DNA of 64,000 nt from assembly GCF_000384315.1 (NCBI RefSeq), contig NZ_ARVW01000001.1, forward strand, positions 8,477,001 to 8,541,000, in the 5' to 3' direction. Made by a program: the position numbers and the translations under genes. The DNA is from Amycolatopsis nigrescens CSC17Ta-90 (GTDB lineage: Bacteria; Actinomycetota; Actinomycetes; Mycobacteriales; Pseudonocardiaceae). Below, piece after piece: positions 2,201 to 22,142 of the stretch; position 1 is the stretch's first letter, and each line of letters begins with the position of its first letter. The notes beneath the pieces are model-generated. The model saw only the letters and a program-made list of their open reading frames with translations. It was not told the origin of the DNA and did not search any database.

Positions 2201-2201
2201 C

Positions 2202-2247
2202 GTCGTGAGTGAAAAGTGTTGCCGGGACAACACTTTTCACTCACGAC
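2202..2247. terminator. Perfect 20-bp palindrome, copy 1 of a dispersed repeat
   Basis: Arms 2202-2221 and 2228-2247 are perfectly complementary around a 6-nt loop (CCGGGA). The inner 18 nt of the arm, CGTGAGTGAAAAGTGTTG, are identical to the inner arm of the hairpin at 34083-34138. The element starts one base after the SARP stop codon, so it probably terminates that transcript and isolates it from the next operon. Confidence 0.8.
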
Positions 2248-2383
2248 CGCGGCCTCGTGACGTCGCCCCCAATTTCCCTCCACCGGTCCTTTAGCCGGGC
2301 CGGAAACAATTCACGCGGAGCCGGCGAGACACATCGGCGAGCGTGCACAACGCTCTTTCACCGAAACATGATGGGGCCGCGTG

Positions 2384-2851: not shown

Positions 2852-2887
2852 CCGCATCCCCCGCGCACCGGAACGAGGAGTAAACCG

Positions 2888-4366: not shown

Positions 4367-4375
4367 AAGGCAGCT

Positions 4376-5443
4376 ATGACCATCGTTTCCGAACCGGCCA
4401 CGGCCGTACCGCGGACCCGGCGCGGGCCGGGAACCCCGCTCGGCCTCCGGCGGCCGGTGGCGTTGCTGTTCCCCGGCCAGGGCGCGCAGCAGGTGCGCAT
4501 GGCGGCCGGGCTGTACCGGCACAACGCGGTTTTCACCGACGTGATGGACACCGCCTTCTCGCTGTTCGGCCCCGAGGGAGCACGGATCCGCGCCGGCTGG
4601 CTGGCCGAGCAGGCGGACGACATGTTCGACGACGTCACCGTCGCCCAGCCGTTGCTCTACGCGGTCAACTGCGCGCTCGGCCGGATGGTGCTCGGCTGGG
4701 GCCTGCGCCCGGCGGCGCTGCTCGGGCACAGCGTCGGCGAGATGGCCGCGGCCACCCTGGCCGGTGTCTTCGGCCTCGACGACGGAGTGCGGCTGATGCG
4801 AGACCGGGTCGAAGCGTTCGCCGGCAGCGCGCCGGGCGGCATGCTCGCGGTGGCCGCCTCGGCCGCGGAGGTCGAACCGTACCTCTCCGGTGACGTGGTG
4901 GTCGGCGCGATCAACGCGGGCAGGCAGGTCATGCTCGCCGGTCCGGCCGGGCCGCTCGCCGAGGCCGGGGCCAGGCTGCGCGAGGCCGAGTTCACCTGCG
5001 TTCCGGTCAAGGCACGACAGGGTTTCCACAGCCCGATGCTGGCCGAGGCGGCGATGGCCTCCACCCGGGTGTGGGCCGAAACCGAGCTGCGGCCACCGGA
5101 GATCACCCTCTACTCCGCGTACCGGACCGCCGTGCTGACCGCCGAAGTCGCCCGCGACGTGGAGTTCTGGGCCGGCCAGCCCGCCGCTCCCGTCCACTTC
5201 GGACCGACCCTGGACGCACTGCTCGACGACGGCGACTGGCTGCTCCTCGAAGTGGGACCCGGCCAGGGCCTGAGCACACTGGCCCGCCGCCACCCGGCCG
5301 TGCGCGCCGGCCGGTCCGGCATCATCCCGCTCTCCCCAGCCCGCGCCCCCGGCGGCGCGGCCGACCGCCAGGCCGCGCTCAAGGCGGCCAACCGGATCTG
5401 GCTGGAGGGCCACCAACTCGACTGGGCGGCCGTCCGCGGCTGA
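4376..5443 (+). CDS. Acyl/malonyl-CoA:ACP acyltransferase
   Basis: A 355-aa FabD-like acyltransferase. The oxyanion motif LFPGQGAQ is near residue 31, the nucleophile is Ser119 in GHSVG, and the catalytic His218 is in GFHSP. The second motif resembles the malonyl-type HAFHS form more than the methylmalonyl YASH form, so malonyl or another simple acyl group is the expected substrate. Type II polyketide systems often borrow FabD from primary metabolism, so a cluster-encoded copy suggests starter-unit loading, as proposed for OxyP-like and pentangular-cluster enzymes, or a proofreading role. AAAGG lies just before the ATG. The N-terminal 24 residues, rich in Pro and Arg, are extra relative to FabD. 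Confidence 0.9.
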   Translation: MTIVSEPATAVPRTRRGPGTPLGLRRPVALLFPGQGAQQVRMAAGLYRHNAVFTDVMDTAFSLFGPEGARIRAGWLAEQADDMFDDVTVAQPLLYAVNCALGRMVLGWGLRPAALLGHSVGEMAAATLAGVFGLDDGVRLMRDRVEAFAGSAPGGMLAVAASAAEVEPYLSGDVVVGAINAGRQVMLAGPAGPLAEAGARLREAEFTCVPVKARQGFHSPMLAEAAMASTRVWAETELRPPEITLYSAYRTAVLTAEVARDVEFWAGQPAAPVHFGPTLDALLDDGDWLLLEVGPGQGLSTLARRHPAVRAGRSGIIPLSPARAPGGAADRQAALKAANRIWLEGHQLDWAAVRG

Positions 5444-5486
5444 CCGGCTCACCGGAGAAAAGCACAACACACGAAGAAGGAGCGTC

Positions 5487-5870
5487 ATGCCATACGCAGC
5501 GATCACCTACAACGTCAAACCCGGGTTCGAGGACGAAATCGAAGAGGTCTTCTCGAACTTCAAGCGGGTCAGCACGCCGATCATCCGCAACGCCGATGGC
5601 GAGGTCACCGGCCAGCTGCTCGGCAGCGCGGTGTTCATCAAGGACGCGTTCATGGTCCGGTTCATCCACTACGAAGGCTCGATCGCCGAGGTCGGCAGGC
5701 ACATGGCCAGCCAGGGTGGCGTGCACGAGCTGGAGTCGAAGCTGCAGCCCTACCTGGCCGAGGAGCGGGACACCCAGTCCCCGGACAAGTTCCAGAAGCA
5801 CTTCCGCAGCTCGATCATGCGCTCGATCGCGCAGCTGACCCCGGAAAACTACCCCGGCGCCACCGAATAG
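5487..5870 (+). CDS. SchA/CurD-like domain protein
   Basis: A 127-aa soluble protein resembling the SchA/CurD family, which is found almost only in spore-pigment (curamycin, whiE) and pentangular aromatic polyketide clusters. The biochemical role is unsettled; a ferredoxin-like fold and help in cyclisation or oxygenation of long polyketide chains have been suggested. The predicted protein has the typical start MPYAAITYNVKPG and a conserved central stretch around GSAVFIKDAFMVR. A strong AAGGAG lies 4 nt before the ATG. Its presence is one of the better arguments that the missing core PKS makes a long (C24 or larger) aromatic polyketide. Confidence 0.82.
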   Translation: MPYAAITYNVKPGFEDEIEEVFSNFKRVSTPIIRNADGEVTGQLLGSAVFIKDAFMVRFIHYEGSIAEVGRHMASQGGVHELESKLQPYLAEERDTQSPDKFQKHFRSSIMRSIAQLTPENYPGATE

Positions 5871-5879
5871 CGCCCCCGC

Positions 5880-5912
5880 GGGCCGCCGGGGCGGTGGGAG
5901 CCCCGGCGGCCC
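5880..5912 (+). terminator. GC-rich hairpin between SchA/CurD and oxidase genes
   Basis: Twelve perfectly paired bases (GGGCCGCCGGGG at 5880-5891 with 5901-5912) enclose a 9-nt loop. It lies 10 nt after the SchA/CurD stop and 25 nt before the oxidase start, so it could act as a partial terminator or attenuator that lowers oxidase expression relative to the upstream genes. Confidence 0.5.
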
Positions 5913-5937
5913 GCCCTACCCTTCCCGGAGGCCTTCG

Positions 5938-8040
5938 ATGAACGCCGCGGCGTCATTCGAGAACATCCTGAACCTGGACACCATCCTCGCCGCGCTGCTC
6001 GTGGTGATCTGGGGCGTCGCGGGCTACAGCGCGGGCAGGCTCGCCGGCCGGCGGACCTTGCGCGGGCTGCGGGCCGGCGCCCGCCGCGGCCTCGGCTACC
6101 TGCTGCTCGGCCTGCTGCTGGCGCTGGCCCGCGCGGTGCTGATCGGCGTGACCGCGAGCTACGGCTGGGACTTCGCGGCCGACCGGATCCTGATTATCGC
6201 GCCGGTCCTGCTGCTGCCCGCGGTCGCCGTGGTGCTGCTCACCGCGCCGAGGCTGTTCCGGCTGGCGCGCCTGCCGGTCACCGACCGTGCCGCGGAAACC
6301 GGCCGGGACACCCGCCGGGAGGCCGCGTCCCCGATGTTGGTGCTGCCGGTGCACGCCACCGCCGTCGGCGCCGTCTTCGGCCTGTACTTCGGTTTCATCA
6401 ACCCGGTCGCGCCACCGATCCTTGGCAGCGCGCTGTTCGCGCTGATCGGCTGGCTGTTGCTGGTCGCACTGCTGCACACCCGCCAGGTCCGGCGGCAGCG
6501 CAGGCTCGGCGGGCTCGAAGTGGCGGCGCTGCCCCGGCCGCTGGTGCGGATGTCGAAGGGACTGGCCGTGGTCACCGCGGCCGTGCTGGCCATCGCGGGC
6601 TCGCTGTTCTGGTCGGTGGAGTCGAGCAGGCTGCCGGCGCGGATCGACATGGGCGGGCACCACGCGCAGGCCGCCGGCGGCGGTGGGCACGGAGCCGCGC
6701 ACGCGGCGACCGGAGCCGCGCCGGCCGACCAGCTCAGCGTGCCCGAACTGGTCGACCGCAGCACCGAGGAACCCGCACGGCGGTTCACCCTGGTCGCGCA
6801 GGACACCCGGATCCGGCTGGCCTCCGGCAAGATCGTCGACGGCAAGACCTTCAACGGCCAGGCCCCCGGCCCGGAGCTGCGGGTGCGCCAGGGCGAGCTG
6901 ATCGAGGTCACCCTGGTGAACAGGATGGCCGCCACCAGCGCCACCATCCACTGGCACGGGATCAACGTGCCGAACGCGGCCGACGGGGTACCCGGCGTCA
7001 CCCAGGACGCGGTGCAGCCTGGTCAGGAGTTCGTCTACCGCTTCCGGATCAACGAGGTGGGCACGCACTGGTACCACACGCACCAGGACTCGGCCGGCAA
7101 CGTGTCCGCCGGGCTGTTCGGCGCGCTGCTCGTGGAGCCGCGCGAAGGCCCGCCCCCGCCCGCGCACGAGATCTTCGTGCCGATGCACGGCTGGCCGGTG
7201 GACGGCAAGAGCGTGCCCGCCTTCGGCACCGCGGATCTGCTGGACCGCCGGGCGATCCAGCCCGGCACCAAGGTCCGGCTGCGGGTGATCGACACCGACG
7301 TGATGCCGCGCCGGTTCGTGCTCGACGGCACCCCGTTCAAGGTCACCTCGCTGGACGGCACCCCGGTCAACGGCCCGACCGACCTCACCGACAAGCTGAT
7401 CACCCTGGGCAGCGGCGGCCGGGCCGACCTGGAGTTCACCATGCCGGACCACCCGGTGCGGCTGACCTACCTGTTCGCCAAGGACAGCGGCCTGCTGCTC
7501 AGCCCGGACGGCACCGGCGACGTGACCCCGGTGTTCGACCGGCCCGACTTCGACTTCACCACCTACGGCACCCCGACCGCGACCCCATTCGGGCCCGCGA
7601 GCCGTTTCGACCGCGAGTACACCCAGCTGTTCGACAGCGAACCCGGTTTCTACGACGGCAAGTTCGCCTTCCTGTGGACCACGAACGGCAAAGTCTTCCC
7701 GGACGTGGAGAACCTGGTCGCGCGCGAGGGCGAGCTGATCAAGGTCAAGTTCGTCAACCGCAGCCGGTTCGACCACCCGATGCACCTGCACGGGCACAAG
7801 ATGCTGGTGCTCAGCCGCGGCGGCCGCCCGGTCACCGGCAGCCCGGTCTGGCTGGACACCCTCGATGTCGACGTCGGCGAAGAGTGGGAGATCGCGTTCC
7901 GCGCGGACAACCCCGGCATCTGGATGGACCACTGCCACAACTTCCTGCACGCCCAGGTCGGCATGATGCTGCACCTGACCTACGAGAACGTCACCTCCCC
8001 CTACCAGATCGGCCCCGACACCCCCAACAACCCGTCCTAA
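5938..8040 (+). CDS. Membrane-anchored multicopper oxidase (laccase-like)
   Basis: A 700-aa fusion. Residues 1-230 hold about six transmembrane helices, followed by a His/Gly/Ala-rich linker (about 238-262). Residues 265-700 are a multicopper oxidase with all four copper motifs: HWHG (His338/340), HWYHTH (377-382), HPMHLHGH (613-620) and HCHNFLHAQVGM (665-676). Cys666 and axial Met676 complete the type 1 site, so the oxidase should be active. Family members oxidise phenols using O2. Inside this operon it could oxidise or couple the phenolic polyketide at the membrane, or serve copper homeostasis; the first is favoured only by context. CGGAGG lies about 7 nt before the ATG. The gene ends the operon, 13 bp before a strong terminator. 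Confidence 0.9.
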   Translation: MNAAASFENILNLDTILAALLVVIWGVAGYSAGRLAGRRTLRGLRAGARRGLGYLLLGLLLALARAVLIGVTASYGWDFAADRILIIAPVLLLPAVAVVLLTAPRLFRLARLPVTDRAAETGRDTRREAASPMLVLPVHATAVGAVFGLYFGFINPVAPPILGSALFALIGWLLLVALLHTRQVRRQRRLGGLEVAALPRPLVRMSKGLAVVTAAVLAIAGSLFWSVESSRLPARIDMGGHHAQAAGGGGHGAAHAATGAAPADQLSVPELVDRSTEEPARRFTLVAQDTRIRLASGKIVDGKTFNGQAPGPELRVRQGELIEVTLVNRMAATSATIHWHGINVPNAADGVPGVTQDAVQPGQEFVYRFRINEVGTHWYHTHQDSAGNVSAGLFGALLVEPREGPPPPAHEIFVPMHGWPVDGKSVPAFGTADLLDRRAIQPGTKVRLRVIDTDVMPRRFVLDGTPFKVTSLDGTPVNGPTDLTDKLITLGSGGRADLEFTMPDHPVRLTYLFAKDSGLLLSPDGTGDVTPVFDRPDFDFTTYGTPTATPFGPASRFDREYTQLFDSEPGFYDGKFAFLWTTNGKVFPDVENLVAREGELIKVKFVNRSRFDHPMHLHGHKMLVLSRGGRPVTGSPVWLDTLDVDVGEEWEIAFRADNPGIWMDHCHNFLHAQVGMMLHLTYENVTSPYQIGPDTPNNPS

Positions 8041-8053
8041 CCCCTGACCCCCT

Positions 8054-8109
8054 GGCAAATAGCCGGCTTTTCGCCCTTTCCGTTTGGGGCAAAAAGCCGG
8101 CTATTTGCC
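8054..8109. terminator. Bidirectional terminator with perfect 18-bp stem
   Basis: Arms 8054-8071 (GGCAAATAGCCGGCTTTT) and 8092-8109 are perfectly complementary, with a further GCCC/GGGC pairing towards the loop. The arms carry T- and A-runs in the right place for intrinsic termination in both directions. It lies between the convergent oxidase and accC operons and would stop both. Confidence 0.85.
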
Positions 8110-8194
8110 GTTCTGGGGGCGGGGCCGGCGAGTTCCGCACAGGGAGATGGCCCTGGCTGGGGGGGCAGCCAGGGCCATCGGGTGGGGAGGAGGG

Positions 8195-9589
8195 TCAGCT
8201 TGCTCGGCGGGTTTCGGCGTCTCGCTGTTCGGCGAGTTCGGCCATCAGGGAGGTGGTGTGCGTGCCGGCGCGGAACACCGGGTCGGCCAGCACCTCGCGC
8301 AGCACGCCGGCGGTGGTCCGCACGCCGCCGCCGGCGATGCGGAACTCGGCCAGCGCGCGGTCCATCCGGTTCAACGCGTCGGTGCGGTCCGCGCCCCAGG
8401 TGATCACCTTGGCCAGCAGCGAGTCGTAGTCCGGCGGGATCCGCCAGCCCTGGTAGGCGGCGGTGTCCACCCGCACGAACGGGCCGCCGGGAGTGACGAA
8501 CTCGGTCAGCTCGCCGGGACACGGCGCGAAGTCGCGCGTCGGGTCCTCCGCGTTCACCCGGCATTCCACCGCGACCCCGCGCGGCGCCAGATCCTCCTGC
8601 CGGAACGACAGCGGCCTGCCCGCGGCGATGTTCAGCTGCTCGCGCACCAGGTCCACCCCGGTCACCATCTCGGTCACCGGATGCTCGACCTGGATGCGGC
8701 AGTTCACCTCGATGAAGGCCACCTCGTCGTCGTTCACCACGAACTCGAAGGTGCCGGCCCCGGTGTACCCCACCGCCTTCGCGCCGGCCACGGCCGCCTC
8801 GGTGAGCTGCCGGTAGACGGACTCGTCAAGACCCGGGGCCGGGCTCTCCTCGATCAGCTTCTGGTGCCGGCGCTGGACCGAGCAGTCGCGCTCGCCGAGG
8901 TGCACCACGTTGCCGTGCTCGTCGGCGAGCACCTGAACCTCGACATGACGGCCGCCCTCGAGAAAACGCTCCAGGTACACCCGCTCGTCCCCGAACACCG
9001 CCCTGGCCGCGGCCCTGGTGGCCCGGAACGCGGGCAGCAGCTCGTCCCAGCTCCGCACCACCGCGATCCCTTTACCGCCACCGCCGGCGACCACCTTGAT
9101 GATCAGCGGCAGGCCGATCTCGTGCGCGGCCGAGACCACCTCGTCCGAGCCGAACACCGGCTCGGGCGTGCCGGCCAGCACCGGCAGCCCGGCCTCGGTC
9201 ATCAGCCGCCGCGCCACCACCTTGTCCCCCAGCGAGCCCATCACCTCCGGCCGGGGGCCGACGAAGACCAGCCCGTTGCCCGCGCAGATCTCCGCGAAGT
9301 CAGGGTCCTCGGAAAGGAACCCGTACCCGGGGTGGACCGCCTGCGCACCCGTGCGCAGCGCGGCCTCGACGATCGCCGGCGGGTAGAGGTAGCTGCGTTT
9401 CGCTGCGCCAGGGCCGATCTGCACGGCCTCGTCGGCGGCGAGCACGGCCGCCGACTCGCGGTCCACTTCGGAATGCACCACCACGGACCGGACGCCGAGC
9501 TCCCGGCAGGTCCGGACCACCCGCAGCGCGATCTCGCCCCGGTTGGCCACCAGCACCGTCTCGAACGGCGGCCGCGTCACCGCGCTCAC
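8195..9589 (-). CDS. accC: Acetyl-CoA carboxylase biotin carboxylase subunit
   Basis: A 464-aa biotin carboxylase, normal length for AccC. It carboxylates the biotin on AccB using ATP and bicarbonate. Visible features are the N-terminal VLVANRGEIALRV, the ATP-grasp glycine loop KVVAGGGGKGI, the EMNCR-like segment FIEVNCRIQVEHPVTE and a C-terminal closing domain. The GTG start overlaps the accB stop (GTGA), so translation is coupled. It is the last gene of the ten-gene leftward operon and is followed by the 8054-8109 terminator. As a separate AccC it differs from the housekeeping actinobacterial AccA3-type fusion, so it probably serves polyketide synthesis. Confidence 0.95.
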   Translation of the reverse strand: MSAVTRPPFETVLVANRGEIALRVVRTCRELGVRSVVVHSEVDRESAAVLAADEAVQIGPGAAKRSYLYPPAIVEAALRTGAQAVHPGYGFLSEDPDFAEICAGNGLVFVGPRPEVMGSLGDKVVARRLMTEAGLPVLAGTPEPVFGSDEVVSAAHEIGLPLIIKVVAGGGGKGIAVVRSWDELLPAFRATRAAARAVFGDERVYLERFLEGGRHVEVQVLADEHGNVVHLGERDCSVQRRHQKLIEESPAPGLDESVYRQLTEAAVAGAKAVGYTGAGTFEFVVNDDEVAFIEVNCRIQVEHPVTEMVTGVDLVREQLNIAAGRPLSFRQEDLAPRGVAVECRVNAEDPTRDFAPCPGELTEFVTPGGPFVRVDTAAYQGWRIPPDYDSLLAKVITWGADRTDALNRMDRALAEFRIAGGGVRTTAGVLREVLADPVFRAGTHTTSLMAELAEQRDAETRRAS

Positions 9590-10098
9590 GCCTCTTCCAC
9601 CGGCCTGAGCACCAGCAGCGGCTGGCCGTACTCCACCGGCTGCCCGTCCGCGGCCAGTATCTCCACCACCTCGCCCGGTGCCTCGGCGACGATGGAGTTC
9701 ATCAGCTTCATCGCCTCGATGATCGCGACCTGCTGCCCGGCCTCCACCACGTCACCGACCGAGACGAACGGCGCGGCATACGGTTCCGGCGCGCGGTAGA
9801 ACGTGCCCAGCAGCGGCGCGCGCAGCTCCACGCCTTCGCGCTCGGCCGGGGGCGGTGCCTCCGCCGGAACCCCCGGCGCCGGTGGCGGCCCTGCCGCCCA
9901 CTCCACCTCCAGACTGGCGCAGCCGAACCGCAGGCTCACCCTGCTCGGGGTGTGCGGGGCGGCCCGCAGGATGTTCTGCACGCCGCTGCTCAGTACCCTG
10001 ATCGCTTCCTCGGCACCCGGCTGCGGGAACTCCTGATCCATGGTCCGGATGTCCTCCTGCAGCCGCTGTTCCGGCGTCACTATCGGCACGCCCGTCAT
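9586..10098 (-). CDS. accB: Biotin carboxyl carrier protein of acetyl-CoA carboxylase
   Basis: A 170-aa AccB. The C-terminal biotinyl domain carries the biotinylation motif EAMKLMN with Lys131, and the preceding thumb-like loop (APLLGTFYRAPEP) is typical of AccB. An Ala/Pro-rich hinge (about residues 70-90) joins it to an N-terminal subunit-contact region. It receives carboxyl groups from AccC and passes them to the carboxyltransferase encoded just upstream (30-bp gap). The stop overlaps the accC start. Confidence 0.95.
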   Translation of the reverse strand: MTGVPIVTPEQRLQEDIRTMDQEFPQPGAEEAIRVLSSGVQNILRAAPHTPSRVSLRFGCASLEVEWAAGPPPAPGVPAEAPPPAEREGVELRAPLLGTFYRAPEPYAAPFVSVGDVVEAGQQVAIIEAMKLMNSIVAEAPGEVVEILAADGQPVEYGQPLLVLRPVEEA

Positions 10099-10128
10099 CT
10101 CCTGCCTCCTGTGTTCTGCTGAAAGTCG

Positions 10129-11811
10129 TTACGCCCCGGCCAGGCCGAAAGCGCGGAACCGGGCCCGCCTGGCGGCGACCAGCTCGTTCCCCGGACGGGC
10201 ACGCAGCTCGCGCAACGCGGCGACCACCGACCGGCGGACCAGGTCGCTGGCCGCGTCCGGGTTCCGGTGCGCGCCACCGTCGGGCTCGGGCACCACCCCG
10301 TCCACGATGCCGAGCCGCAACAGCGAGCCGGCGTCCACCCGCAGCGCCCCCGCGGCACGGGTTGCCGCCCCCGGGTCACGCCACAGGATCGCCGCGCATC
10401 CTTCCGGGCTGATCACCGAGTAGATCCCGTTCTCGCTGACCAGCACCCGGTCCGCGACGGCGAGCGCGAGCGCGCCACCGCTGCCGCCTTCACCGGTGAT
10501 CACGCTGACCACCGGCACCGGCAGCCCGCCCATCGTGCGCAGGCACTCCGCGATCGCCGCGGCCTGGCCCTGCTCCTCCGCCTCCAGCCCGGGATGCGCG
10601 CCTGGCGTGTCCACCAGCGCCACCACCGGTACCCGGAGTTTCGCCGCCAGCCGCATCAGCCGTTCGGCCTTCCGGTACCCCGAAGGCGACGGCATGCCGA
10701 ACTGCCGCTTCACCAGCTCCGCGGTGCTGTGCCCCTTCTGGTGGCCGATGAACATCACCGGCAGCCCGTCCAGGGAGCCGAGGCCGCCGACGATCGCCGG
10801 GCAGTCCGAGCCGCGCCGGTCGCCGTGCAGTTCGACGAACCCGTCCGCCCAGTTGTCGATGTGGTCCAAAGTGGTCGGACGGGCCAGCTCGCGCGCGGTA
10901 CGCAGCACCTCGTCCACCGGTTTCTCCGGCAGCAGCCCTGGATCCCGCAGCACCGGGTCGGTCACCGAGTGCCCCCAGCCGGTGCCGGCGGGGCGGGTCA
11001 TCGACAGCAGGTTCGCCAGCATCCGCGGCAGCTCCGGCCGCGGCCGGACGTCGTCGACGTGCCCGTGCGACAGCAGGAACTCCGCGGTCTGGAAGCCTTC
11101 GGGCAGCCGCTGCCCGATGGTCTGCTCGATCACCCGCCTGCCGGCGAAACCCATCCGTGCGCCTGGCTCGGCGACGATGATGTCCGACAGCGTCGCGTAG
11201 GACGCGGCCACCCCGCCGAAGGTCGGATCGGTGACCAGCGTGATGGTCAGCAGGCCCGCCTCGTCGAGCTCGGCCATGGCGTTGCTGGTCTTGGCCATCT
11301 GCATCAGGGAGAGCACGCCCTCCTGCATCCGGGCGCCACCGGAAGCGGTGACCAGCAACAGCGGCGAGTCGTGCGCGATGGCGGCCTCGGCGGCGGTCGC
11401 GATCGCCTCCCCCGCCGCGCTGCCGAGGCTGCCGCCGAGGAACCGGAAGTCCATCGCGACCACCACCACCGAGTGCCCGTGCACGGCGCCGTGCGCCACC
11501 TGTACCGCGTCGTCGAGACCGGTGGCGCTCCTCGCCTTGGCCAGCCTGGTCGCATACGGCACCAGGTCGGTGAAAGTGAGCGGATCGTGCACCGCGGGGC
11601 GCGGTTCGACGGGCTTCGCCGAACCGTCGTCGAGCAGCTTGGCCAGCCGCTCCGCCGCCGTCATCGGACTGTGCCAGCCGCATTCCGGGCAGACTCCGGC
11701 GAAGCGGTCGAATCTCTTGCGGTACAACAACCCCTGGCATCGCCTGCAGACCAGCCAATCGGTCTGCTCGCTCTGCTGGGCCGCGCGCGGGCGGTTCACC
11801 ATCTCGGTCAT
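10129..11811 (-). CDS. accDA: Acetyl-CoA carboxyltransferase, fused beta (AccD) and alpha (AccA) halves
   Basis: A 560-aa protein joining AccD and AccA in one chain. The N-terminal half has the four-Cys zinc ribbon (CRRC and CPEC, about residues 21-43) and the beta-subunit crotonase motif [10 protein letters not shown]. The C-terminal half has alpha-subunit motifs including DTPGAHPG and GEGGSGGA. It moves carboxyl from biotin to acetyl-CoA, giving malonyl-CoA. The fused form next to accB and accC is known from type II polyketide clusters and would raise extender supply. The ATG at 11811 is chosen because the protein then begins just before the zinc ribbon and overlaps the upstream stop (ATGA). 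A second ATG is at 11802. Confidence 0.94.
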
Positions 11812-12002
11812 CTCTGGCCCCACTCGTCCTTCGGTCGTGGCTCCCCCGACGTACTTCCGCCCGCGGAACCTGGCCAGGACCCGGGGACCGCGTGCCCGCT
11901 CATGGCCGCGCCGACCACGATCAGCATGTCGACCAGCGCGGTGCCGATCTTCCGCCACCGGGCCCGGAGTGCTTCCTCTTCTTCCGGGGTTGGTGTCCGC
12001 AT
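11808..12002 (-). CDS. 64-aa protein, possible carboxylase small (epsilon-like) subunit
   Basis: A small gene with a strong GAGGAGG Shine-Dalgarno before its ATG and a 4-bp overlap with accDA, so it is almost certainly translated. The product starts [16 protein letters not shown], then has a short hydrophobic stretch (about 18-34) and a Gly/Ser/Pro-rich polar tail. Actinobacterial acyl-CoA carboxylases have tiny epsilon subunits with a PTPEELAAL-type motif beside their carboxyltransferase genes. The PTPEEEEAL motif and position fit such a subunit, but this is inference; no other family was recognised. Confidence 0.62.
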
Positions 12003-12043
12003 GATTGGACCTCCTCACCAACTCACCGGTTCGCGGCACGCGC

Positions 12044-12358
12044 TCACTCGTATGCCGCCGTCACCTGGTACACCCCGAACGGCCGGCCGGAACTGGTGTC
12101 CCGGAACGGCCGCAGCGGTGTCGTCGTCCTGCGGTGGTCGGCGCCCTGTTCCCATTCCTGGAAGGCCGCCATGCTCTCCCACGAGCTCAGCACCACGAAC
12201 CCGTTCGGGTCCTGGACCGACCGCAGCAGCTCGTTGCCCAGCAGTCCGGGTACACCGGCCAGCTCCTTGCTCACCTCGTGGTAGGCGGCCTCGATCCCGG
12301 CGACGTCCTCGGTCGCGTTGAAGATCAGCACCCGCACCCCGCCGGTGGTACCGCCCAT
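12044..12358 (-). CDS. Antibiotic biosynthesis monooxygenase (ABM) family protein
   Basis: A 104-aa protein of the ABM dimeric alpha-beta barrel fold, shown by the pattern [30 protein letters not shown]. Relatives such as TcmH and ActVA-ORF6 are cofactor-free and convert anthrones or naphthacenones to quinones; others are accessory proteins in pentangular pathways. The start ATG shares a base with the stop of the upstream SDR gene (TGATG), so translation is coupled. With two DUF1772 proteins in the cluster, quinone formation may have more than one route or more than one target ring. Confidence 0.85.
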
Positions 12359-13110
12359 CAGCTCATCCCGCCGTCGACCGGGATCACCGCGCCGGTGACG
12401 AACGAGGACAGGTCGCTGGCCAGCCACAGCACCGCACCGGCGGCCTCGGTCGCCTTGCCGATCCGGCCGAAGGCGCTCTTCTTGCTGTACAAGGAGATCA
12501 TCGCCTGACGCTGGTCGTCGGGCAGGTCGCGCAGGGTCTCGGTCTCGATCACGCCGAGGCGCAGGATGTTGAACCGGATACCGCGCTCGCCGAACTCCCT
12601 TGCCAGCGAACGGTTCAGGCCGATCAGGGCGGCCTTGGTTGCGGTGTAGTGCGCCCGCAGCTTCACCCCGGCCTCCACCGACCGCGACCCGATGCTGATC
12701 ACCGAGCTGCCCTCGCCGAGCAGCGGCAGCGACTTCTGGATCACCATGTGCACCGAGGTGAGGTTGGTGGCGACCATCCGGTTCCACTCCTCGAACGGCA
12801 GCTCCGCATACGGGATGTGGCTGATCGTGCCGGCGTTGTTGACCAGCACGTCGAGCTTGCCGTGCAGCCGTTCGCACTCACCGATCAGCTCGGTCACCTG
12901 GTCCGGGTCGGACACGTCGGCGCGGATGATGCTGTGTTCGCCGCCGATCTCCTTGAGCTCGCGCTCCAGCGACGCGACGTGCTCGCTCTCCCGCCGATAG
13001 CAGGTCACCACGTCCACCCCGGCGCGGGCCAGGCCCAGCACCAGGCCGCGGCCGACGCCGCGGACACCACCGGTGACGAGCGCCTTCTTGCCCTTGAGAC
13101 TCAGTTCCAT
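12358..13110 (-). CDS. Short-chain dehydrogenase/ketoreductase
   Basis: A 250-aa classical SDR. The cofactor motif TGGVRGVG is near residue 13, then NNAG near 91, catalytic Ser in SIGSRS, and Tyr/Lys in YTATK. The C-terminus ends [11 protein letters not shown], as in FabG-type enzymes. An Arg in the glycine motif and a Tyr-Arg-Arg after beta-strand 2 suggest NADPH. It probably reduces a polyketide carbonyl; which one cannot be read from sequence. A GGAGG lies 8 nt before the ATG. It resembles the SDR at 15000-15737 in length and operon membership but not in detail, so they likely act at different steps. Confidence 0.9.
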
Positions 13111-13153
13111 TTTCCATTCCTCCAGCTGTCTTGTGTTGACGCGATGTGCGGAC

Positions 13154-13627
13154 CTAGAGCGGCGTGCTCAGCACGGCGACCAGCGCCAGGCAGTTGACCA
13201 GGAAGGCCAACATGCCGAGCAGGCTGCGGCGCCGGTTCCACGGACCCCACACCGGCCGGGGGTCGCGTTCGGTGAAGTCGGCGGGCAGCTGCGCCGGCTC
13301 CAGCGTCTGCACGTAACGGTTTCCCGGCACGTTCTTGGTCAGCGAGATGACCCCGGTGGCCAGCGCCAACAGCGCCGACGTGGCGAACAGGGACTGGGCG
13401 ACCGTGCCGTCCGCGGTCACCGCCAGCGTGAGGTCACCGAGGAAGGTGACGATCAGGCAGAGCGGCATCCAGGGGTCGTACCGGGTGGAGAAGAAGGCGT
13501 GCGCCCGAACGTAGTCGGCGTCCGGCAGCACCCGGAGGAACGGCCAGCCGCCGAGCTGGGTGGCCAGCAGCACGCCGGCCGCGAGCCCGTTCGCCAGCAG
13601 CACGAGCGGGACCAGAATGCCTGTCAT
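13154..13627 (-). CDS. DUF1772 (anthrone oxygenase-like) membrane protein, copy 2
   Basis: A 157-aa membrane protein with four hydrophobic helices, carrying NVPGNRY, then [13 protein letters not shown] and a WNRRR just before the last helix. The same pattern (NVPxNR, PAD, DPRPxW, WxxxR) is in the protein at 2384-2851, so they are paralogs. An anthrone-oxidation role is inferred from the family. The reading begins GTG-ATG with GGAGG immediately upstream; the ATG gives better spacing (6 nt). It lies 19 bp after the aromatase/cyclase gene. Confidence 0.8.
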
Positions 13628-13646
13628 CACCGACCTCCGCCGTGCT

Positions 13647-14997
<1,351 letters not shown>

Positions 14998-14999
14998 GG

Positions 15000-15737
15000 T
15001 CAGATCCCCCCGTCCACGGTGATGTTGGCGCCGGTCACGTACTTGGCGGCGTCACCGGCCAGGAACAGCACCGAGGCGGCGACCTCCTCCGGCTGGCCGA
15101 TCCGGCCGAGCGCGGTCATCGCGGCGAGCCGCTCCAGCACGTGCGGCGGCAGGCCGGCGCCTGGCTCGGTTTCGGTGACCCCCGGCGAGACCAGGTTGAC
15201 CCGGATACCGCGCGGGCCCGCCTCCTTGCACAGCGCCCTGGTGAACCCGATCAGCGCGGCCTTGGCGGTGGTGTAGTGCACCGCGTTCGGCCTGCCGCGG
15301 CTGGCCACCGACGACCCGATGCTGATCACCGAGCCGCCGTCGGCCAGCGCCGGCAGCGCCGCCTGGGTGACCAGGTAGGTGGCGGTCACGTTGCTGTCCA
15401 TCACCCGCTGCCATTCGGCGGTGTCCAGCTTGCCCAGCGGGGCCATGCCGTCCACTCCGACGTTGTTGACCAGGACGTCGAGTCCGCCGAGCGCACCGGT
15501 GGCGGTCTCGACCAGTCCGGCGGCGTCCTCGGCGCTCGTCACGTCCGCCTGCACGACCTGGTGCTGGTCGCCGATTTCCTTCAGCTCACGGGTGAGTTCC
15601 GCGGCCGCCTCGGCATCGGTGTGGTAGCAGGTCACGACGGTGGCTCCGGCACGCGCGAACGCGAGCACCGTCGCCCGGCCGATCCCCTTGGTTCCTCCGG
15701 TCACAAGCACCCGCTTGCCCGACAATCCTTGATCCAC
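15000..15737 (-). CDS. Short-chain dehydrogenase/ketoreductase, first gene of the leftward operon
   Basis: A 245-aa SDR with TGGTKGIG near residue 14, NNVG (instead of NNAG) near 91, Ser in SIGSS, Tyr/Lys in YTTAK, and a C-terminal VTGANITVDGG. This is FabG-like and probably reduces a polyketide ketone. The reading frame stays open far upstream, but the true start is taken as GTG 15737. It follows an AAGGGA, and family similarity begins at VDQGLSGKRVLVTGG. It is first in the ten-gene operon, so the promoter lies in 15738-15988. Confidence 0.9.
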   Translation of the reverse strand: MDQGLSGKRVLVTGGTKGIGRATVLAFARAGATVVTCYHTDAEAAAELTRELKEIGDQHQVVQADVTSAEDAAGLVETATGALGGLDVLVNNVGVDGMAPLGKLDTAEWQRVMDSNVTATYLVTQAALPALADGGSVISIGSSVASRGRPNAVHYTTAKAALIGFTRALCKEAGPRGIRVNLVSPGVTETEPGAGLPPHVLERLAAMTALGRIGQPEEVAASVLFLAGDAAKYVTGANITVDGGI

Positions 15738-15988
15738 CGGACATTCCCTTCTGCTGCGTCGGTCGTGAGTCACGCTGGCGGACACCATGCAGACGCGGGT
15801 TCGGGCGTCACTCGAAACGTGATCCAGCCGATTTCCCACCAGTCGCGGCCCTGGTTCGCGAGCCCTTTCCTCAGGCCGTTTTCGAGCGGGACGCGAGCCG
15901 GACGTGGTTGTGCCGCTAGCCGACGCGGGCACGCTGTCCGGCATCCGACGCCGCATCGGCGACGTCACAGGTACGCAGGGGGTACCGC
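15738..15988. promoter_or_regulatory. Divergent promoter region between the two cluster operons
   Basis: A 251-bp gap between the starts of the leftward ten-gene operon and the rightward LLM-amide operon, so it must carry promoters in both directions. The SARP is the obvious candidate activator. TCGAAAC (near 15812) and TTCGAGC (near 15880) resemble SARP half-sites, but no clean 11-bp tandem array is visible, so I do not assign a site. Confidence 0.6.
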
Positions 15989-17136: not shown

Positions 17137-18975
17137 ATGTCTGGTGTTGTCGGCTGGATCGACTTCTCGAGGAACCTGCGGCTGCACCGGCCGATCATCA
17201 CGATGCTGGCGTCCACACTGGCGCAACGCGGCCCGGACACCGAGTCGGTGTGGGTTTCACCGGCCGCGGCGCTCGGCTACCGCGGGCTCGCCGCCGATGG
17301 TGCGCCCTGCCAACAGCCCGCCGTGATCGAGTCGGACGGCCGCACCGTCGCCGCCTGCGTGGCCGGCTCCCCCTTCGGCCTGGACGAGCTGCGGGCCAGG
17401 CTGCGGTCGTCCGGGGTCGCGGTGACCCCGGACGCTTCCGCCGCCGAGCTCGTCGCACACGCTTTCCTGCGCTGGCAGGACGAGTTCATCCCGGCGCTGG
17501 CCGGCTCCTTCGCACTGTCCATCTGGGACTCCCGCGCCGAGGAGCTGCTGCTGGCGCGCAGTGCGATGGCCGGACAGGGCCTCTACTACGCGAACACGGC
17601 CACCGGCGTGGTGTTCGGCTCCGAGCGCAAGGCCGTGCTCGCCCACCCGGAGATCTCCTCGGCGGTGGACATCGACGGCATGCGCGAGGTGGTCACGCAC
17701 GCGCTGCCGCCAGGTCCGCTGTTCCGCGACCTCGGCCAGGTGAACGGGGCGGAGATCGCCCGGTTCACCCGCAACGGCTGGAAACGCCGCAACTACTGGA
17801 AGTTCGAGAGCAGGCCGCACACCGACGACGCGGACACCACGATCAGGAACATCCGCGAAATGCTCGAGGAGAGCATGCGGCACAACCTGCCTGCCGACCC
17901 GTCCAAGCTCACCGTGATGCTCTCCGGCGGGATCGACTCCTCTTCGGTCGCCGCACTCGCCGCGGCCGAGCTTCGCCGCCGGGGCAGTGCGGACCGGCTG
18001 AAGACCTTCACCATCGACTACGTGGACGACGAGTTCAAAGCGGACGTCATGCGCGTGACCAAGGACGCACCCTTCGCCGAGCTCGTGGCCGAGCACATCG
18101 GCGCCGAGCAGACCACGGTGCGGCTGGAGGCCACCGACACCCTGGACCCGCTGATCCGGATGGGCATCCTGCGCGCCAACGACGGCCCGACCCGGATCTA
18201 CGACATGGACGCGGCACAGCACCTGTTCCTGCAGCACGTTTCCGCGCAGGGCAACAAGATCGCGTTCACCGGCTACGGGGCGGACAACGCGTTCCTCGGC
18301 GCGAACTGGTCCAACGACAAGGGCCTGATCGAATCCGGCACCTTCCCCTGGGTCGCGCTGGCCCAGCGGTTCGGCGCCATGAACGGGTTCGGCACCGGTC
18401 TGCTCAACCCGGACTTCCTGGCCAAGCTGGACCTGCAGGCCTACTACCGGGACACCTACGCGACCGCGGTCGGCCAGGTGGAGCACCTGCCCGGCGAGGA
18501 CGAGTGGCAGCGCACCATGCGCCGGGTCTCCTACCTGGTGCTGACCCTGTTCCGCAGCGACCAGCCGGTGTTCGCCGACGCCGGGCTGCAGGCGCGTTCT
18601 CCGATCAGCTCGGCGAAACTGCTGCAGTACGCCTACAACATCCCGATCGAGATGCAGAAGCACGGCGGCCACGAAAAGGGCCTGCTGCGCGCGGCGGTCG
18701 CCGATCTGCTGCCCGACGAGATCGTCACCCGGCCGCGCAGCGCCGCCCCGGTCAGCCATCACCCCGGCTACCCGCGGCGGTTGCAGGAGGAGTTCAAGGC
18801 GCTGTTGGCCGACCCGCAGGCACCGGCCAGGTCGCTGATCGACCTTCCGGCCGCGACCGAACTGGCCGACCAGCCGGAACGGATCGCGAAGGACCGGCTG
18901 GCCCGCGCAGACATCGAACTCGCGCTGCAGATGAACCTGTGGATCGAGCAGTACCACGTGCGCCTGGCGCTCTAG
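17137..18975 (+). CDS. Asparagine-synthetase-like amide ligase, catalytic Cys2 replaced by Ser
   Basis: A 612-aa class II asparagine synthetase homologue. The N-terminal Ntn domain starts MSGVVGW where glutamine-using enzymes have MCG; the second codon is TCT, so the Cys nucleophile is absent. The C-terminal synthetase domain keeps the ATP pyrophosphatase loop SGGIDSS (263-269) and should adenylate a carboxylate. Cys-less relatives use a free amine rather than glutamine ammonia; beta-lactam synthetase is an example, and PdmN in pradimicin synthesis couples an amino acid to an aromatic polyketide acid. A polyketide-amino acid amide ligase is therefore the best guess. Cluster relatives with other proposed roles include FdmV and OxyD. 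GGAAAGG precedes the ATG. Confidence 0.9.
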   Translation: MSGVVGWIDFSRNLRLHRPIITMLASTLAQRGPDTESVWVSPAAALGYRGLAADGAPCQQPAVIESDGRTVAACVAGSPFGLDELRARLRSSGVAVTPDASAAELVAHAFLRWQDEFIPALAGSFALSIWDSRAEELLLARSAMAGQGLYYANTATGVVFGSERKAVLAHPEISSAVDIDGMREVVTHALPPGPLFRDLGQVNGAEIARFTRNGWKRRNYWKFESRPHTDDADTTIRNIREMLEESMRHNLPADPSKLTVMLSGGIDSSSVAALAAAELRRRGSADRLKTFTIDYVDDEFKADVMRVTKDAPFAELVAEHIGAEQTTVRLEATDTLDPLIRMGILRANDGPTRIYDMDAAQHLFLQHVSAQGNKIAFTGYGADNAFLGANWSNDKGLIESGTFPWVALAQRFGAMNGFGTGLLNPDFLAKLDLQAYYRDTYATAVGQVEHLPGEDEWQRTMRRVSYLVLTLFRSDQPVFADAGLQARSPISSAKLLQYAYNIPIEMQKHGGHEKGLLRAAVADLLPDEIVTRPRSAAPVSHHPGYPRRLQEEFKALLADPQAPARSLIDLPAATELADQPERIAKDRLARADIELALQMNLWIEQYHVRLAL

Positions 18976-19037
18976 CTCATTCGACGCCGGCATGCGCGGC
19001 TCGCGGTGTGCGGGGACAGAACCAACGGAGGCGGAGA

Positions 19038-20120
19038 ATGATTTGCGATAGTGTCCTCGACACGATCGGCCGTACGCCGGTGGTCCGGCTGCGCCGGGTC
19101 ACCGTGCCGAACGGCTCGGAGATACTGGTCAAGCTCGAGGCGTTCAATCCTGGTGGCAGCATCAAGGACAGGGCGGTGCTCTCCATGGTGACCCACGCCG
19201 AACGGGACGGCAGGTTGCAGCCGGGCGGCACCATCGTGGAGTCCACCTCGGGCAACGTGGGCAAGGCGCTCGCGCTGATCGGCGCGGTGCGCGGCTACCG
19301 GGTGATCCTGGTGGTCGACCCGAAGGCACCGGCCTCGATGCTGAAGTACGTCTCGGCGCTCGGCGCGGAGATCGTGCTGGTCGACACGCCGGACGCGCAG
19401 GGCTGGTACCAGGGCCCGCGGATCGAGCGGGTGAAGCAGCTCGTCTCGGTCATCCCGGACTCGTTCTGGCCGGACCAGTACAACAACCCGGACAATCCGA
19501 GGGCGCACGCCGAGCACACCGGGCGCGAGCTGCTCGGCGACGTGCCCAGGTTCGACGCGCTGGTCACCGCGGTCGGCACCGGCGGGCACATCAGCGGCAC
19601 CTCGGCCACGGTCAAGCGCGCGCTGCCGAACGTGGTGACGATCGGGGTGGACGCGAAGAACTCGGCGACCTTCGGGCACCCGTTCAGCGAGTGGTCCGAC
19701 GGCGGCCCGAGCCGGATCCGCGGGCTCGGCCTGATGTGGCAGCCGGGCTGCCTCGACCGTTCCGTGGTGGACCGGGTGCAGCTCGTCGCCGACCACGAGG
19801 GCATCGCCACCACCAGGCTGCTGGCCACCGAGGAGGGCGTGCTGGTCGGCGAGTCGGCCGGGGCGGCCGTGTTCGGCGCGCTGCACCACGCGCACGAGAA
19901 CCCGGGCAGCCGGATCGTGGTGATCGCACCGGACGACGGCGCGAACTACCTCGGCGAGACCTTCGACGACGGCTGGCTGGCCACCCGCGGCCTGCTCGAA
20001 CCGATCGAGAACGCCGGACTGACCACTGTGGACGGACTGCTGACCGCGGCCAGCCTGCCCACCTGCCCGGCGGTGGCGCTGGCGGACGTGGTCGAAGAGC
20101 AGCTCGTGCAGAGCGGCTGA
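19038..20120 (+). CDS. PLP-dependent cysteine synthase family enzyme (SbnA/VioB-like)
   Basis: A 360-aa fold-type II PLP enzyme. The Schiff-base Lys43 is in NPGGSIKD, the substrate loop is STSGNVG, and the phosphate-binding glycine loop is GTGGHISGT. It resembles O-acetylserine sulfhydrylase, but the segment VVDPKAP...SALGAEIVLVD is more like the SbnA/VioB group, which makes 2,3-diaminopropionate or its precursors. It may supply the amine partner of the neighbouring amide ligase. No SbnB-type dehydrogenase is visible, so this is inference. A strong GGAGGCGGAG precedes the ATG. It is 62 bp after the ligase gene and 8 bp before the M24 gene. The C-terminal 60 residues go beyond the core fold. 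Confidence 0.85.
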   Translation: MICDSVLDTIGRTPVVRLRRVTVPNGSEILVKLEAFNPGGSIKDRAVLSMVTHAERDGRLQPGGTIVESTSGNVGKALALIGAVRGYRVILVVDPKAPASMLKYVSALGAEIVLVDTPDAQGWYQGPRIERVKQLVSVIPDSFWPDQYNNPDNPRAHAEHTGRELLGDVPRFDALVTAVGTGGHISGTSATVKRALPNVVTIGVDAKNSATFGHPFSEWSDGGPSRIRGLGLMWQPGCLDRSVVDRVQLVADHEGIATTRLLATEEGVLVGESAGAAVFGALHHAHENPGSRIVVIAPDDGANYLGETFDDGWLATRGLLEPIENAGLTTVDGLLTAASLPTCPAVALADVVEEQLVQSG

Positions 20121-20128
20121 CCCCGACG

Positions 20129-21334
20129 ATGCTGGCCAATGTGAACCGCATCGCGCGGCGGATGGACGAGCTCGGGCTGGACGCGATCGTCGCCACCACC
20201 TTCGAGAACGTCTTCTACCTGACCGGAATCGCGAGCGTCACGATGGAGGTTGTGCCGCACGTCGGGCAGTGCTATGCGGTGCTCACCCGCGACCGGCCCG
20301 CGCACCCGAGGCTGGTCTCCACCCGGTGCGACATGGACCAGTTCCTGGACGCGCTGCCGGAGCTCGACGAGATCGTCGGCTACGGCTCGTTCTTCCGCGA
20401 GGAGGAGTCAGCGGCCGGGCTGACCGGCGAGCTGGAGCGGCTGCGCCAGGTCACCGAGACCGGCCCAAGGCCGGCGACCGCGCTCGACGGCCTGGTGCAC
20501 GCCCTGCGCTCGGCCGGGGTCGCCGGCGGCCGCATCGCGGTCGACGAAGGCTCGGTGCCGCACGGGTTCCTCGACGAGCTCGCCGGGCAGCTGCCCGGCG
20601 CGCGGATCGTCACCGGTGCGGAAACGCTGCGCTGGGTGCGCAAGGTCAAGACCGAGCCGGAACTGCGCCGGCTGGCGGGTTCGGCCGCGGTCACCGAGCA
20701 GGGCATCCGCGCGGCGATCGCGCTCGCCAGGCCGGGGGTCACCGAGCTCGAACTGGTGCGCGAGTTCGAGCGCACGGTGGCCGGGGCGGGCGGCAGGCCG
20801 AAGTTCACCCTGGTCAAGTTCGGCGCCGCGGGCGTGGCCGGGCAGACCGCGCCGCGCGGTGACGTGCCGCTGCGCGCCGGCGACGCGATCTGGATGGACG
20901 TCGGCTGCGTCTACCAGGGCTACTGGTCCGACATCGCCAGGGTGCACAGCTTCGGCGAGCCCTCGGACAAGCTCGCCAAGTACCACGCGGCCGTGCTGGC
21001 CGGGCAGGAGCGGGCGATCCGCGACACGCGGCCGGGCATGTCGGGCCGGGAGGTGTTCGAACTGACCGTGGAGGCCGTGCGCGAATCGGGTATGCCGCAC
21101 TACCGGAGGCAGAACGTCGGGCACGGGATCGGCGTGGAGATCTACGACCACGTCCTGCTCACCCCGACCACCGAGGAACTGCTCGAAGAGGACACCGTGG
21201 TCAATATCGAGACGCCTTATCATGAGTTCGGCTTCGGTGTGGTCCAAGCAGAAGACCCCTTCGTACTCCGCGGCGGCGGAAACGAACTGCTGACCACGCT
21301 GCCGCGCGAGCTCGCGGTCCTGCCCGTGCGCTGA
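20129..21334 (+). CDS. M24 family metallopeptidase (Xaa-Pro dipeptidase/creatinase fold)
   Basis: A 401-aa protein with a creatinase N-terminal domain (1-160) and a pita-bread C-terminal domain. All five dimetal ligands are present: Asp257, Asp268, His332 (GHGIG), Glu361 and Glu375. It should therefore be a working hydrolase of C-N bonds. In this operon it may trim an amino-acid amide formed by the preceding ligase, or process an amino donor; both are speculation, and a general dipeptidase is possible. It begins 8 bp after the PLP gene without a clear ribosome site, so it is probably translationally coupled. It is the last cluster gene recognised. Confidence 0.88.
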   Translation: MLANVNRIARRMDELGLDAIVATTFENVFYLTGIASVTMEVVPHVGQCYAVLTRDRPAHPRLVSTRCDMDQFLDALPELDEIVGYGSFFREEESAAGLTGELERLRQVTETGPRPATALDGLVHALRSAGVAGGRIAVDEGSVPHGFLDELAGQLPGARIVTGAETLRWVRKVKTEPELRRLAGSAAVTEQGIRAAIALARPGVTELELVREFERTVAGAGGRPKFTLVKFGAAGVAGQTAPRGDVPLRAGDAIWMDVGCVYQGYWSDIARVHSFGEPSDKLAKYHAAVLAGQERAIRDTRPGMSGREVFELTVEAVRESGMPHYRRQNVGHGIGVEIYDHVLLTPTTEELLEEDTVVNIETPYHEFGFGVVQAEDPFVLRGGGNELLTTLPRELAVLPVR

Positions 21335-22097: not shown

Positions 22098-22142
22098 GCT
22101 GGTTCAGGCCACCGAGATCACGAGAAACAGGTAACCGCACGA

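What the first reader, a model, noticed from the sequence alone, without database searches (positions are those of the whole stretch)
17137..21334. Possible amino-acid ligation and trimming cassette: amide ligase, SbnA-like PLP enzyme, M24 hydrolase
The three genes are collinear and all have intact active sites except the ligase glutaminase site. A coherent reading is that the PLP enzyme makes a non-protein amino acid (for example 2,3-diaminopropionate or a beta-substituted alanine), the ligase attaches it to the polyketide acid, and the M24 enzyme removes or trims it later. I know of no described system with this trio. It is the best candidate for an undescribed pathway in the window.
Basis: inference. 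Interest (0 to 1): 0.75.

Follow-up and report, generated by a model that had tools for sequence, protein, structure and literature searches.

The report
Amide-ligase, PLP and M24 gene trio
Three neighbouring genes at the edge of an aromatic-antibiotic gene cluster travel together in many soil bacteria and probably fasten an unusual amino acid onto the antibiotic, but the exact chemistry is unknown and the third enzyme is not an ordinary peptidase.

Summary
The trio is real: ligase (LIG) 17137-18975, PLP enzyme 19038-20120, M24 enzyme 20129-21334, all +, gaps 62 and 8 bp. It borders a type II PKS cluster. The finding's refutation test, 'trio not conserved', fails: a named-genome scan gave 11 loci with the ligase clade; M24 neighbours LIG in 11 of 11, with the clade's PLP gene between them in 8 of 11. 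All ten of these genomes that could be searched hold a related KS-alpha, seven on the same contig. A second, PKS-free operon couples M24 and PLP genes to another asparagine-synthase-like ligase and an HpaB oxygenase. Corrections: glutaminase loss is clade-wide (Ser2 in 40 of 40; nearest solved relative TsnB9); SbnA-type diaminopropionate synthesis is not supported (below the SbnA cut-off; no SbnB-family gene within 50 kb seen in nine genomes); M24 keeps five metal ligands but has Gln and Tyr at two positions that are His in prolidases and paralogues, so peptide trimming is doubtful. Most likely: PLP makes a beta-substituted alanine, LIG attaches it, M24 processes amine or adduct. Substrates, order and product are inferred.

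The parts
17137..18975 (+). LIG: asparagine-synthase-fold amide ligase without a glutaminase site, TsnB9-like
17140..17142 (+). Ser2 codon where glutamine-dependent amidotransferases have Cys2; Ser in 40 of 40 clade proteins compared
17920..17943 (+). LSGGIDSS, ATP-pyrophosphatase loop of the synthetase domain, intact
19038..20120 (+). PLP: fold-type II PLP enzyme (cystathionine beta-synthase / cysteine synthase / O-ureidoserine synthase / SbnA superfamily)
19164..19166 (+). Lys43 (SIKDR), the PLP lysine of the family (role recalled), invariant in 19 of 19 aligned sequences
20129..21334 (+). M24: pita-bread-fold metalloenzyme with non-canonical active site
20843..20845 (+). Gln239 at the position of a His of M24 peptidases; Gln in 131 of 134 sequences
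21143..21145 (+). Tyr339 at the position of a second His of M24 peptidases; Tyr in 133 of 134 sequences
326..15968 (.). Part of the host type II PKS cluster (BTAD regulator, anthrone oxygenases, MFS, acyltransferase, SchA/CurD cyclase, multicopper oxidase, acyl-CoA carboxylase subunits, cyclase, SDRs); KS-alpha, CLF, ACP, KSIII and a second ligase lie left of the window in L009

Best explanation
The trio is a conserved amine-coupling sub-cluster of a group of type II PKS clusters (pentangular type, inferred from gene content). The PLP enzyme, a CBS-like beta-replacement enzyme, makes a beta-substituted alanine from serine or an activated serine. LIG, an asparagine-synthase-fold ligase whose glutaminase half has lost its catalytic residues, adenylates a carboxylate of the polyketide and joins it to that free amine. 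The M24-fold metalloenzyme then acts on the amino-acid end of the adduct, by hydrolysis, ring closure or elimination, with chemistry that differs from that of prolidases. Shown: gene content, order, conservation, residue patterns. Inferred: substrates, order of steps, and that the acyl partner is the polyketide. Rough odds: cassette is a functional unit 0.9; LIG uses an amine that does not come from its own glutaminase 0.85; PLP product is that amine 0.6; M24 acts after ligation 0.35.
For: LIG-PLP-M24 in one order and strand in eight loci plus the window; LIG-PLP gaps -4 to 71 bp (8 loci), PLP-M24 gaps 7 to 26 bp (7 loci; not measured in L012, whose M24 frame is broken), 62 and 8 bp in the window. 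By tblastn LIG+M24 11 of 11, clade PLP 8 of 11, window LLM gene 0 of 11, u194 and RES 0 of 11 (context lengths differ between loci). Related KS-alpha (70-81% identity) in 10 of 10 searchable LIG genomes, same contig in 7. Patchy spread of the PLP clade: 2 of 397 (E 1e-85), 2 of 394, 3 of 341, 4 of 343 and 2 of 396 genomes (E 1e-80) (samples overlap: the own genome is in the first two, one hit in the second and third). Protein distances correlate over 12 contigs: r 0.83, 0.61, 0.46, matched by 0, 0 and 6 of 5000 permutations. Ser2 40 of 40 with the synthetase loop kept. The LIG model matches TsnB9 at TM 0.88 against 0.54-0.66 for AsnB, human ASNS and beta-lactam/carbapenam synthetases. The PLP clade sits directly before two ATP-grasp ligase genes in two other genomes. 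M24 and PLP recur with another ligase in a second operon.
Against: No product or substrate is known. The clade's PLP gene is missing from 3 of 11 loci, where only a 36-38% PALP gene lies about 7 kb beyond M24. M24 and PLP also occur with an asparagine-synthase-like protein that has Cys2, so they are not there just to serve a glutaminase-dead ligase. The cluster has a second ligase (AS2), Ser2 in the 7 of 7 copies seen, which could use the same amine. The distance correlation was not corrected for shared descent of the whole cluster, and 17 of 40 LIG proteins found neither partner on a contig of equal length in the lists used. In 3 of 10 searched LIG genomes KS-alpha lies on another contig, so linkage is not shown there.
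Confidence: 0.45

Rival explanations
1. PLP and M24 together make the amine donor before ligation; LIG only consumes it. M24 would be a small-molecule hydrolase, cyclase or lyase on the PLP product, like ectoine hydrolase, creatinase or DMSP lyase, which share its fold.
Against: The PLP clade occurs without M24 in two genomes' contexts, and M24 occurs next to LIG without the clade's PLP in 3 of 11 loci.
Confidence: 0.3
2. Nitrogen delivery: an amino acid is only a carrier. LIG attaches it, M24 (as a lyase or hydrolase) and PLP break it down, and a primary amide or amine remains on the polyketide.
For: Both ligases of the cluster lack Cys2, so nitrogen must come from elsewhere; M24-fold lyases exist (DddP). 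TsnB9 is itself fed by a carrier, glutamate gamma-hydroxamate (PMC5719088, PMC13418202, passages).
Against: The M. cosmeticum and Streptomyces G1068 operons keep M24 and PLP beside a ligase with Cys2. No product known.
Confidence: 0.12
3. Prodrug or self-protection: the amino acid inactivates the antibiotic in the cell and M24 removes it.
For: A POT/PTR2-family transporter gene is found in the contexts of 7 of 11 loci and by the window's cluster.
Against: M24 starts MLANVNRIARRMDELG, which by eye has no export signal, and its active site differs from that of peptidases. Transport of the product was not tested.
Confidence: 0.08
4. The trio is a chance neighbourhood of housekeeping genes (asparagine synthase, cysteine synthase, prolidase).
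For: All three families are common (recalled; the own genome has 13 Asn_synthase and 6 M24 matches).
Against: Conserved order in 8 of 11 loci, patchy presence in genomes, clade-specific sequence features.
Confidence: 0.02

Closest known systems
TsnB9, hydroxyamidotransferase of trichostatin A (PDB 7YLZ), and SaHAT
   Same: Full-length homology and fold (352.7 bits over residues 1-605; TM 0.88). SaHAT is reported to activate a free carboxylate with ATP (PMC13418202, passages).
   Different: TsnB9 has Cys2 and takes hydroxylamine from glutamate gamma-hydroxamate; LIG has Ser2 and no glutamine-site motif, and its neighbours are PLP and M24 genes, not the amido-oxygenase pair TsnB6/7.
XanA / Abf2 / LtmO asparagine-synthase-like enzymes of polycyclic xanthone and related clusters
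   Same: Same family, in pentangular type II PKS clusters; Abf2 and XanA are assigned to lactam formation (PMC9469721, passages); LtmO is 56% identical to XanA (PMC9127795, passages).
   Different: Here a separate AS2 ligase is present as well, and LIG has its own PLP and M24 partners.
Beta-lactam synthetase / carbapenam synthetase
   Same: Asparagine-synthase fold with an unused glutaminase half (recalled for these enzymes).
   Different: Intramolecular ring closure (recalled); weaker structural match (TM 0.54-0.60).
SbnA, cystathionine beta-synthase, cysteine synthase, O-ureidoserine synthase
   Same: Same PLP fold-type II superfamily; best solved matches CBS 209.9, O-ureidoserine synthase 198.5, SbnA 187.9 bits.
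   Different: Below the cut-off of each of the 25 NCBIfam families shown of 32; no SbnB-family gene close by; motif SGNxGK in 17 of 19 aligned sequences.
M24 family: prolidase, ectoine hydrolase DoeA, creatinase, DMSP lyase DddP
   Different: Gln239 and Tyr339 where prolidases have His; below the cut-offs of all 12 NCBIfam families matched.

Membership tests
TsnB9-type hydroxyamidotransferase | Full-length homology and TsnB9-like fold | tested here: met
   352.7 bits, residues 1-605; TM 0.88
TsnB9-type hydroxyamidotransferase | Cys2 and glutamine-site motif of the glutaminase half | tested here: not met
   Ser2 in 40 of 40 clade proteins; NGE-type motif replaced by GxP in 39 of 40 and GAL in one
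TsnB9-type hydroxyamidotransferase | Neighbouring AurF-like amido-oxygenase (TsnB7) and helper (TsnB6) | tested here: inconclusive
   No such Pfam hit among the cluster genes scanned, but not every gene of the region was scanned
ATP-dependent amide synthetase (Asn_synthase superfamily) | ATP-pyrophosphatase loop SGGxDSS | tested here: met
   LSGGIDSS, residues 262-269
SbnA 2,3-diaminopropionate synthase | TIGR03945 score above 349.95 bits | tested here: not met
   277.5 bits
SbnA 2,3-diaminopropionate synthase | SbnB partner (PF02423) nearby | tested here: not met
   9 genomes: 8 have PF02423 matches, none within 50 kb of the trio on its contig; nearest in Couchioplanes, about 58 kb away (82.8 bits); S. 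bluensis has none. Several genomes are drafts
Cystathionine beta-synthase | TIGR01137 score above 510.25 bits | tested here: not met
   284 bits
M24 metalloenzyme fold | PF00557 above cut-off and five metal ligands | tested here: met
   123.6 bits against 23; ligands kept in 133-134 of 134 sequences
M24 peptidase (prolidase / aminopeptidase P) | The two conserved active-site His | tested here: not met
   Gln239 131 of 134, Tyr339 133 of 134; His at both in the 5 of 5 solved prolidase-type sequences shown aligned and in two paralogues of this genome
Pradimicin-type amino-acid ligase (PdmN) | Sequence relation to PdmN | not testable with these tools
   No PdmN sequence at hand; the literature search for the name listed unrelated papers

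The most novel reading that the evidence does not exclude
A portable amine-coupling module in which a glutaminase-dead ligase joins a polyketide acid to a CBS-made beta-substituted alanine, and a metal-binding M24 enzyme with a Gln/Tyr active site performs a non-peptidase step on it (for instance elimination or amidine ring closure). The PLP/M24 pair is reused in PKS-free operons with a second ligase and an HpaB oxygenase.
Probability: 0.3. Interest if true: 0.7.

Novelty: new variant of a known kind. Interest (0 to 1): 0.5.

Why it matters
If right, the module marks a group of uncharacterised aromatic polyketide clusters whose products carry an amino-acid-derived unit, and gives two enzymes with unpredicted chemistry: a TsnB9-fold ligase that needs no glutamine, and an M24 clade that has kept its metal ligands but not the histidines of peptidases. 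The PKS-free operon offers a smaller system in which the PLP/M24 chemistry could be compared.

Tried and rejected
Product identification through named strains. Streptomyces sp. RV15, the strain of locus L020 (S. dysideae RV15), makes SF2446A2, a naphthacene glycoside (PMC4882561 and PMC8621598, passages). Not accepted as a link: that genome has three KS-alpha genes of 64-71% identity, and none of 10 genes scanned beside the LIG-M24 locus is a glycosyltransferase (10 of the 21 ORFs that one search lists in L068 and L069).

Upstream LLM oxidoreductase (15989-16999) as a fourth member: 0 of 11 loci (E 1e-15). Downstream u194 and RES genes: 0 of 11.

'Glutaminase loss is decay of this copy': rejected, Ser2 in 40 of 40. 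'M24 replaces the lost glutaminase': weakened, since M24 also accompanies a ligase with Cys2.

Diaminopropionate by the SbnA/SbnB route: not supported, for lack of an SbnB-family gene near the trio (one lies about 58 kb off in Couchioplanes).

Viral contigs: no relative. Papers: no described trio seen in the listings of searches (in 27 no paper held all five terms). The PdmN search listed unrelated papers. Other passages read for leads: PMC8742384, PMC13122635, PMC9310018, PMC6100084, PMC5321127.

Own M24 paralogues: three of five were read in a wrong frame and dropped; one search shows His at the second position in those three by motif only.

Rows dropped before counts: P0041 (fragment without N-terminus) from the Ser2 count; the N-terminally cut S. 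hirsutus LIG likewise; the M24 of L012 (broken frame) from the count of 134; one search used 40 LIG rows, 55 of 120 PLP rows and 40 of 120 M24 rows and paired them by equal contig length.
Full report
WHAT IS THERE. The window lies at 8,477,001-8,541,000 of a 9.11 Mb chromosome. Its genome is in the same family as that of Amycolatopsis arida (handle G144, 'same family', has the same M24 coordinates as G1056, the genome of locus L015). The finding covers three + strand genes: LIG 17137-18975, PLP 19038-20120, M24 20129-21334. They lie at the right edge of an aromatic polyketide cluster: KS-alpha, CLF, ACP, KSIII, cyclases and a second asparagine-synthase-like ligase (AS2) in L009 to the left, and tailoring genes from 326 to 15968 in the window. 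I call the cluster pentangular-type from its gene content; it was not compared with named clusters. A type I PKS with two KS and two AT domains adjoins it.

CONSERVATION. A profile of the LIG clade found 14 loci in named genomes. In 11 the matched gene is LIG (55-62% identity); in the other 3 it is better matched by AS2, and those show neither PLP nor M24. Among the 11, M24 is next to LIG in all; in 8 (S. acidicola, S. bluensis, Nocardiopsis CNR-923, Couchioplanes, N. sediminis, A. arida, N. flavescens, Streptomyces DH5) the PLP gene sits between them, with LIG-PLP gaps from -4 to 71 bp and PLP-M24 gaps from 7 to 26 bp in the 7 measured. In 3 Streptomyces (TSRI0107, hirsutus, dysideae) it is missing, and only a 36-38% PALP gene lies about 7 kb beyond M24. 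In one draft genome (CNR-923) the M24 frame is broken. A KS-alpha of 70-81% identity occurs in 10 of 10 searchable LIG genomes, on the same contig in 7 (L018's genome was not held). From the protein lists (40 LIG rows, 55 of 120 PLP rows, 40 of 120 M24 rows, paired by equal contig length), 12 of 40 LIG contigs carry all three, 5 LIG+PLP, 6 LIG+M24, 17 neither; this undercounts, since S. bluensis is among the 17 although locus L011 shows its trio. Over the 12 contigs the distances correlate (LIG-PLP 0.83, LIG-M24 0.61, PLP-M24 0.46; 0, 0 and 6 of 5000 permutations), without correction for shared descent. The PLP clade is rare and patchy: 2 of 397, 2 of 394, 3 of 341, 4 of 343 and 2 of 396 genomes (overlapping samples; hits include genomes of the loci above); 0 of the 13 other listed genomes of the same genus have it.

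LIGASE. The best solved relative is TsnB9 (352.7 bits), also by fold (TM 0.88 against 0.54-0.66 for other amide synthetases). TsnB9 begins MCG; LIG begins MSG. Ser2 holds in 40 of 40 clade proteins, the NGE-type glutamine-site motif is replaced (GxP in 39, GAL in 1), and the ATP loop is kept. AS2 has Ser2 in the 7 of 7 copies seen (start codons taken from the conserved motif). TsnB9 moves hydroxylamine from glutamate gamma-hydroxamate to an acid (PMC5719088, PMC13418202, passages); LIG has no catalytic Cys for that route.

PLP ENZYME. It is a fold-type II enzyme of the beta-replacement superfamily, about equally close to cystathionine beta-synthase (284 bits), SbnA (277.5) and cysteine synthases (up to 259.5), below the cut-off of each of the 25 families shown of 32. 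Nine genomes were searched for the SbnB family PF02423: S. bluensis has none; in the other eight no match lies within 50 kb of the trio on its contig, the nearest being about 58 kb away in Couchioplanes (several are drafts, and matches on other contigs cannot be placed). In two other genomes members of the clade stand directly before two ATP-grasp genes and a third gene that is weakly ATP-grasp-like in one (23 bits, below cut-off) and unmatched in the other; in one a 2980-aa gene that reads as an NRPS follows (not scanned). That fits a role in making an amino acid for amide bonds.

SECOND ARCHITECTURE. In Mycolicibacterium cosmeticum and M. madagascariense the order is M24-PLP-HpaB oxygenase-asparagine-synthase-like ligase-flavin reductase, then an MFS gene. 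A D-glutamate-cyclase-family gene lies between flavin reductase and MFS gene in M. cosmeticum; tblastn also finds one in the M. madagascariense context. Streptomyces G1068 has M24-PLP-HpaB with the ligase on the other strand. The ligases of G1068 and M. cosmeticum have Cys2. No KS-alpha at E 1e-140 was found in the two Mycolicibacterium genomes; G1068 has one, on another contig. A D-glutamate-cyclase-family gene is also found in the A. arida, CNR-923 and N. flavescens contexts, next to M24 in the first two.

READING. The ligase, PLP and M24 genes form a functional unit. The most economical mechanism is: PLP makes an amino acid, LIG couples it to a carboxylate, M24 processes the amine or the adduct. 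Which acid, which amino acid and in what order are inferences.

PRINT. Searches listed no paper that describes this trio; the library lacks most subscription journals. Pentangular clusters with a XanA-type asparagine-synthase-like enzyme are described (PMC9469721, PMC9127795, passages).

Noticed in passing
L009:12079-13986 (left of the window): Second asparagine-synthase-like ligase AS2 of the cluster, also with Ser2 (7 of 7 copies seen); the Couchioplanes copy also has an altered ATP loop, LDGTLESS.
   Followed up: partly
L009:2-7972, continuing into L025: A two-module type I PKS adjoins the type II PKS cluster here; tblastn finds a 52-55% relative also in the S. bluensis, CNR-923, N. sediminis and N. 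flavescens contexts.
   Followed up: partly
window 21513-22799: Small unknown gene followed by a RES-domain gene (PF08808); resembles a toxin-antitoxin pair (recalled). Not found in the 11 loci.
   Followed up: no
L057:4848-12212, L058:8170-16827, L053:4131-12493: PKS-free operon M24-PLP-HpaB with a Cys2-type ligase, LysR or AraC regulator and MFS gene, in Mycolicibacterium and Streptomyces.
   Followed up: partly
L048, L050: PLP clade followed by two ATP-grasp genes (and an NRPS-like gene in L048/L049), without LIG or M24 in the stretch read.
   Followed up: partly
L010 and L011 after M24; L018: A second, divergent PALP gene directly downstream of M24 in L010 and L011; L018 has an 85% match to it whose place was not checked.
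   Followed up: no
L012, L015, L017: D-glutamate-cyclase-family gene (PF07286): next to M24 in L012 and L015; a 73% match in the N. flavescens context.
   Followed up: no
L025:17261-19411 and contexts of 7 of 11 loci: POT/PTR2-family transporter accompanies the clusters.
   Followed up: no
L059:379-1086: ThiS-like and JAB-domain genes beside a PALP gene, like the mec-cysO-cysM operon (recalled), about 7 kb from the M24-PLP operon of M. cosmeticum; probably coincidence.
   Followed up: no
P0199 and P0305 (Streptomyces sp. 2323.1): This strain holds relatives of PLP and M24; a paper reports a lysolipin-like cluster with an extra asparagine-synthase region in it (PMC13200232, passages). Whether these are the same place was not tested.
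   Followed up: no
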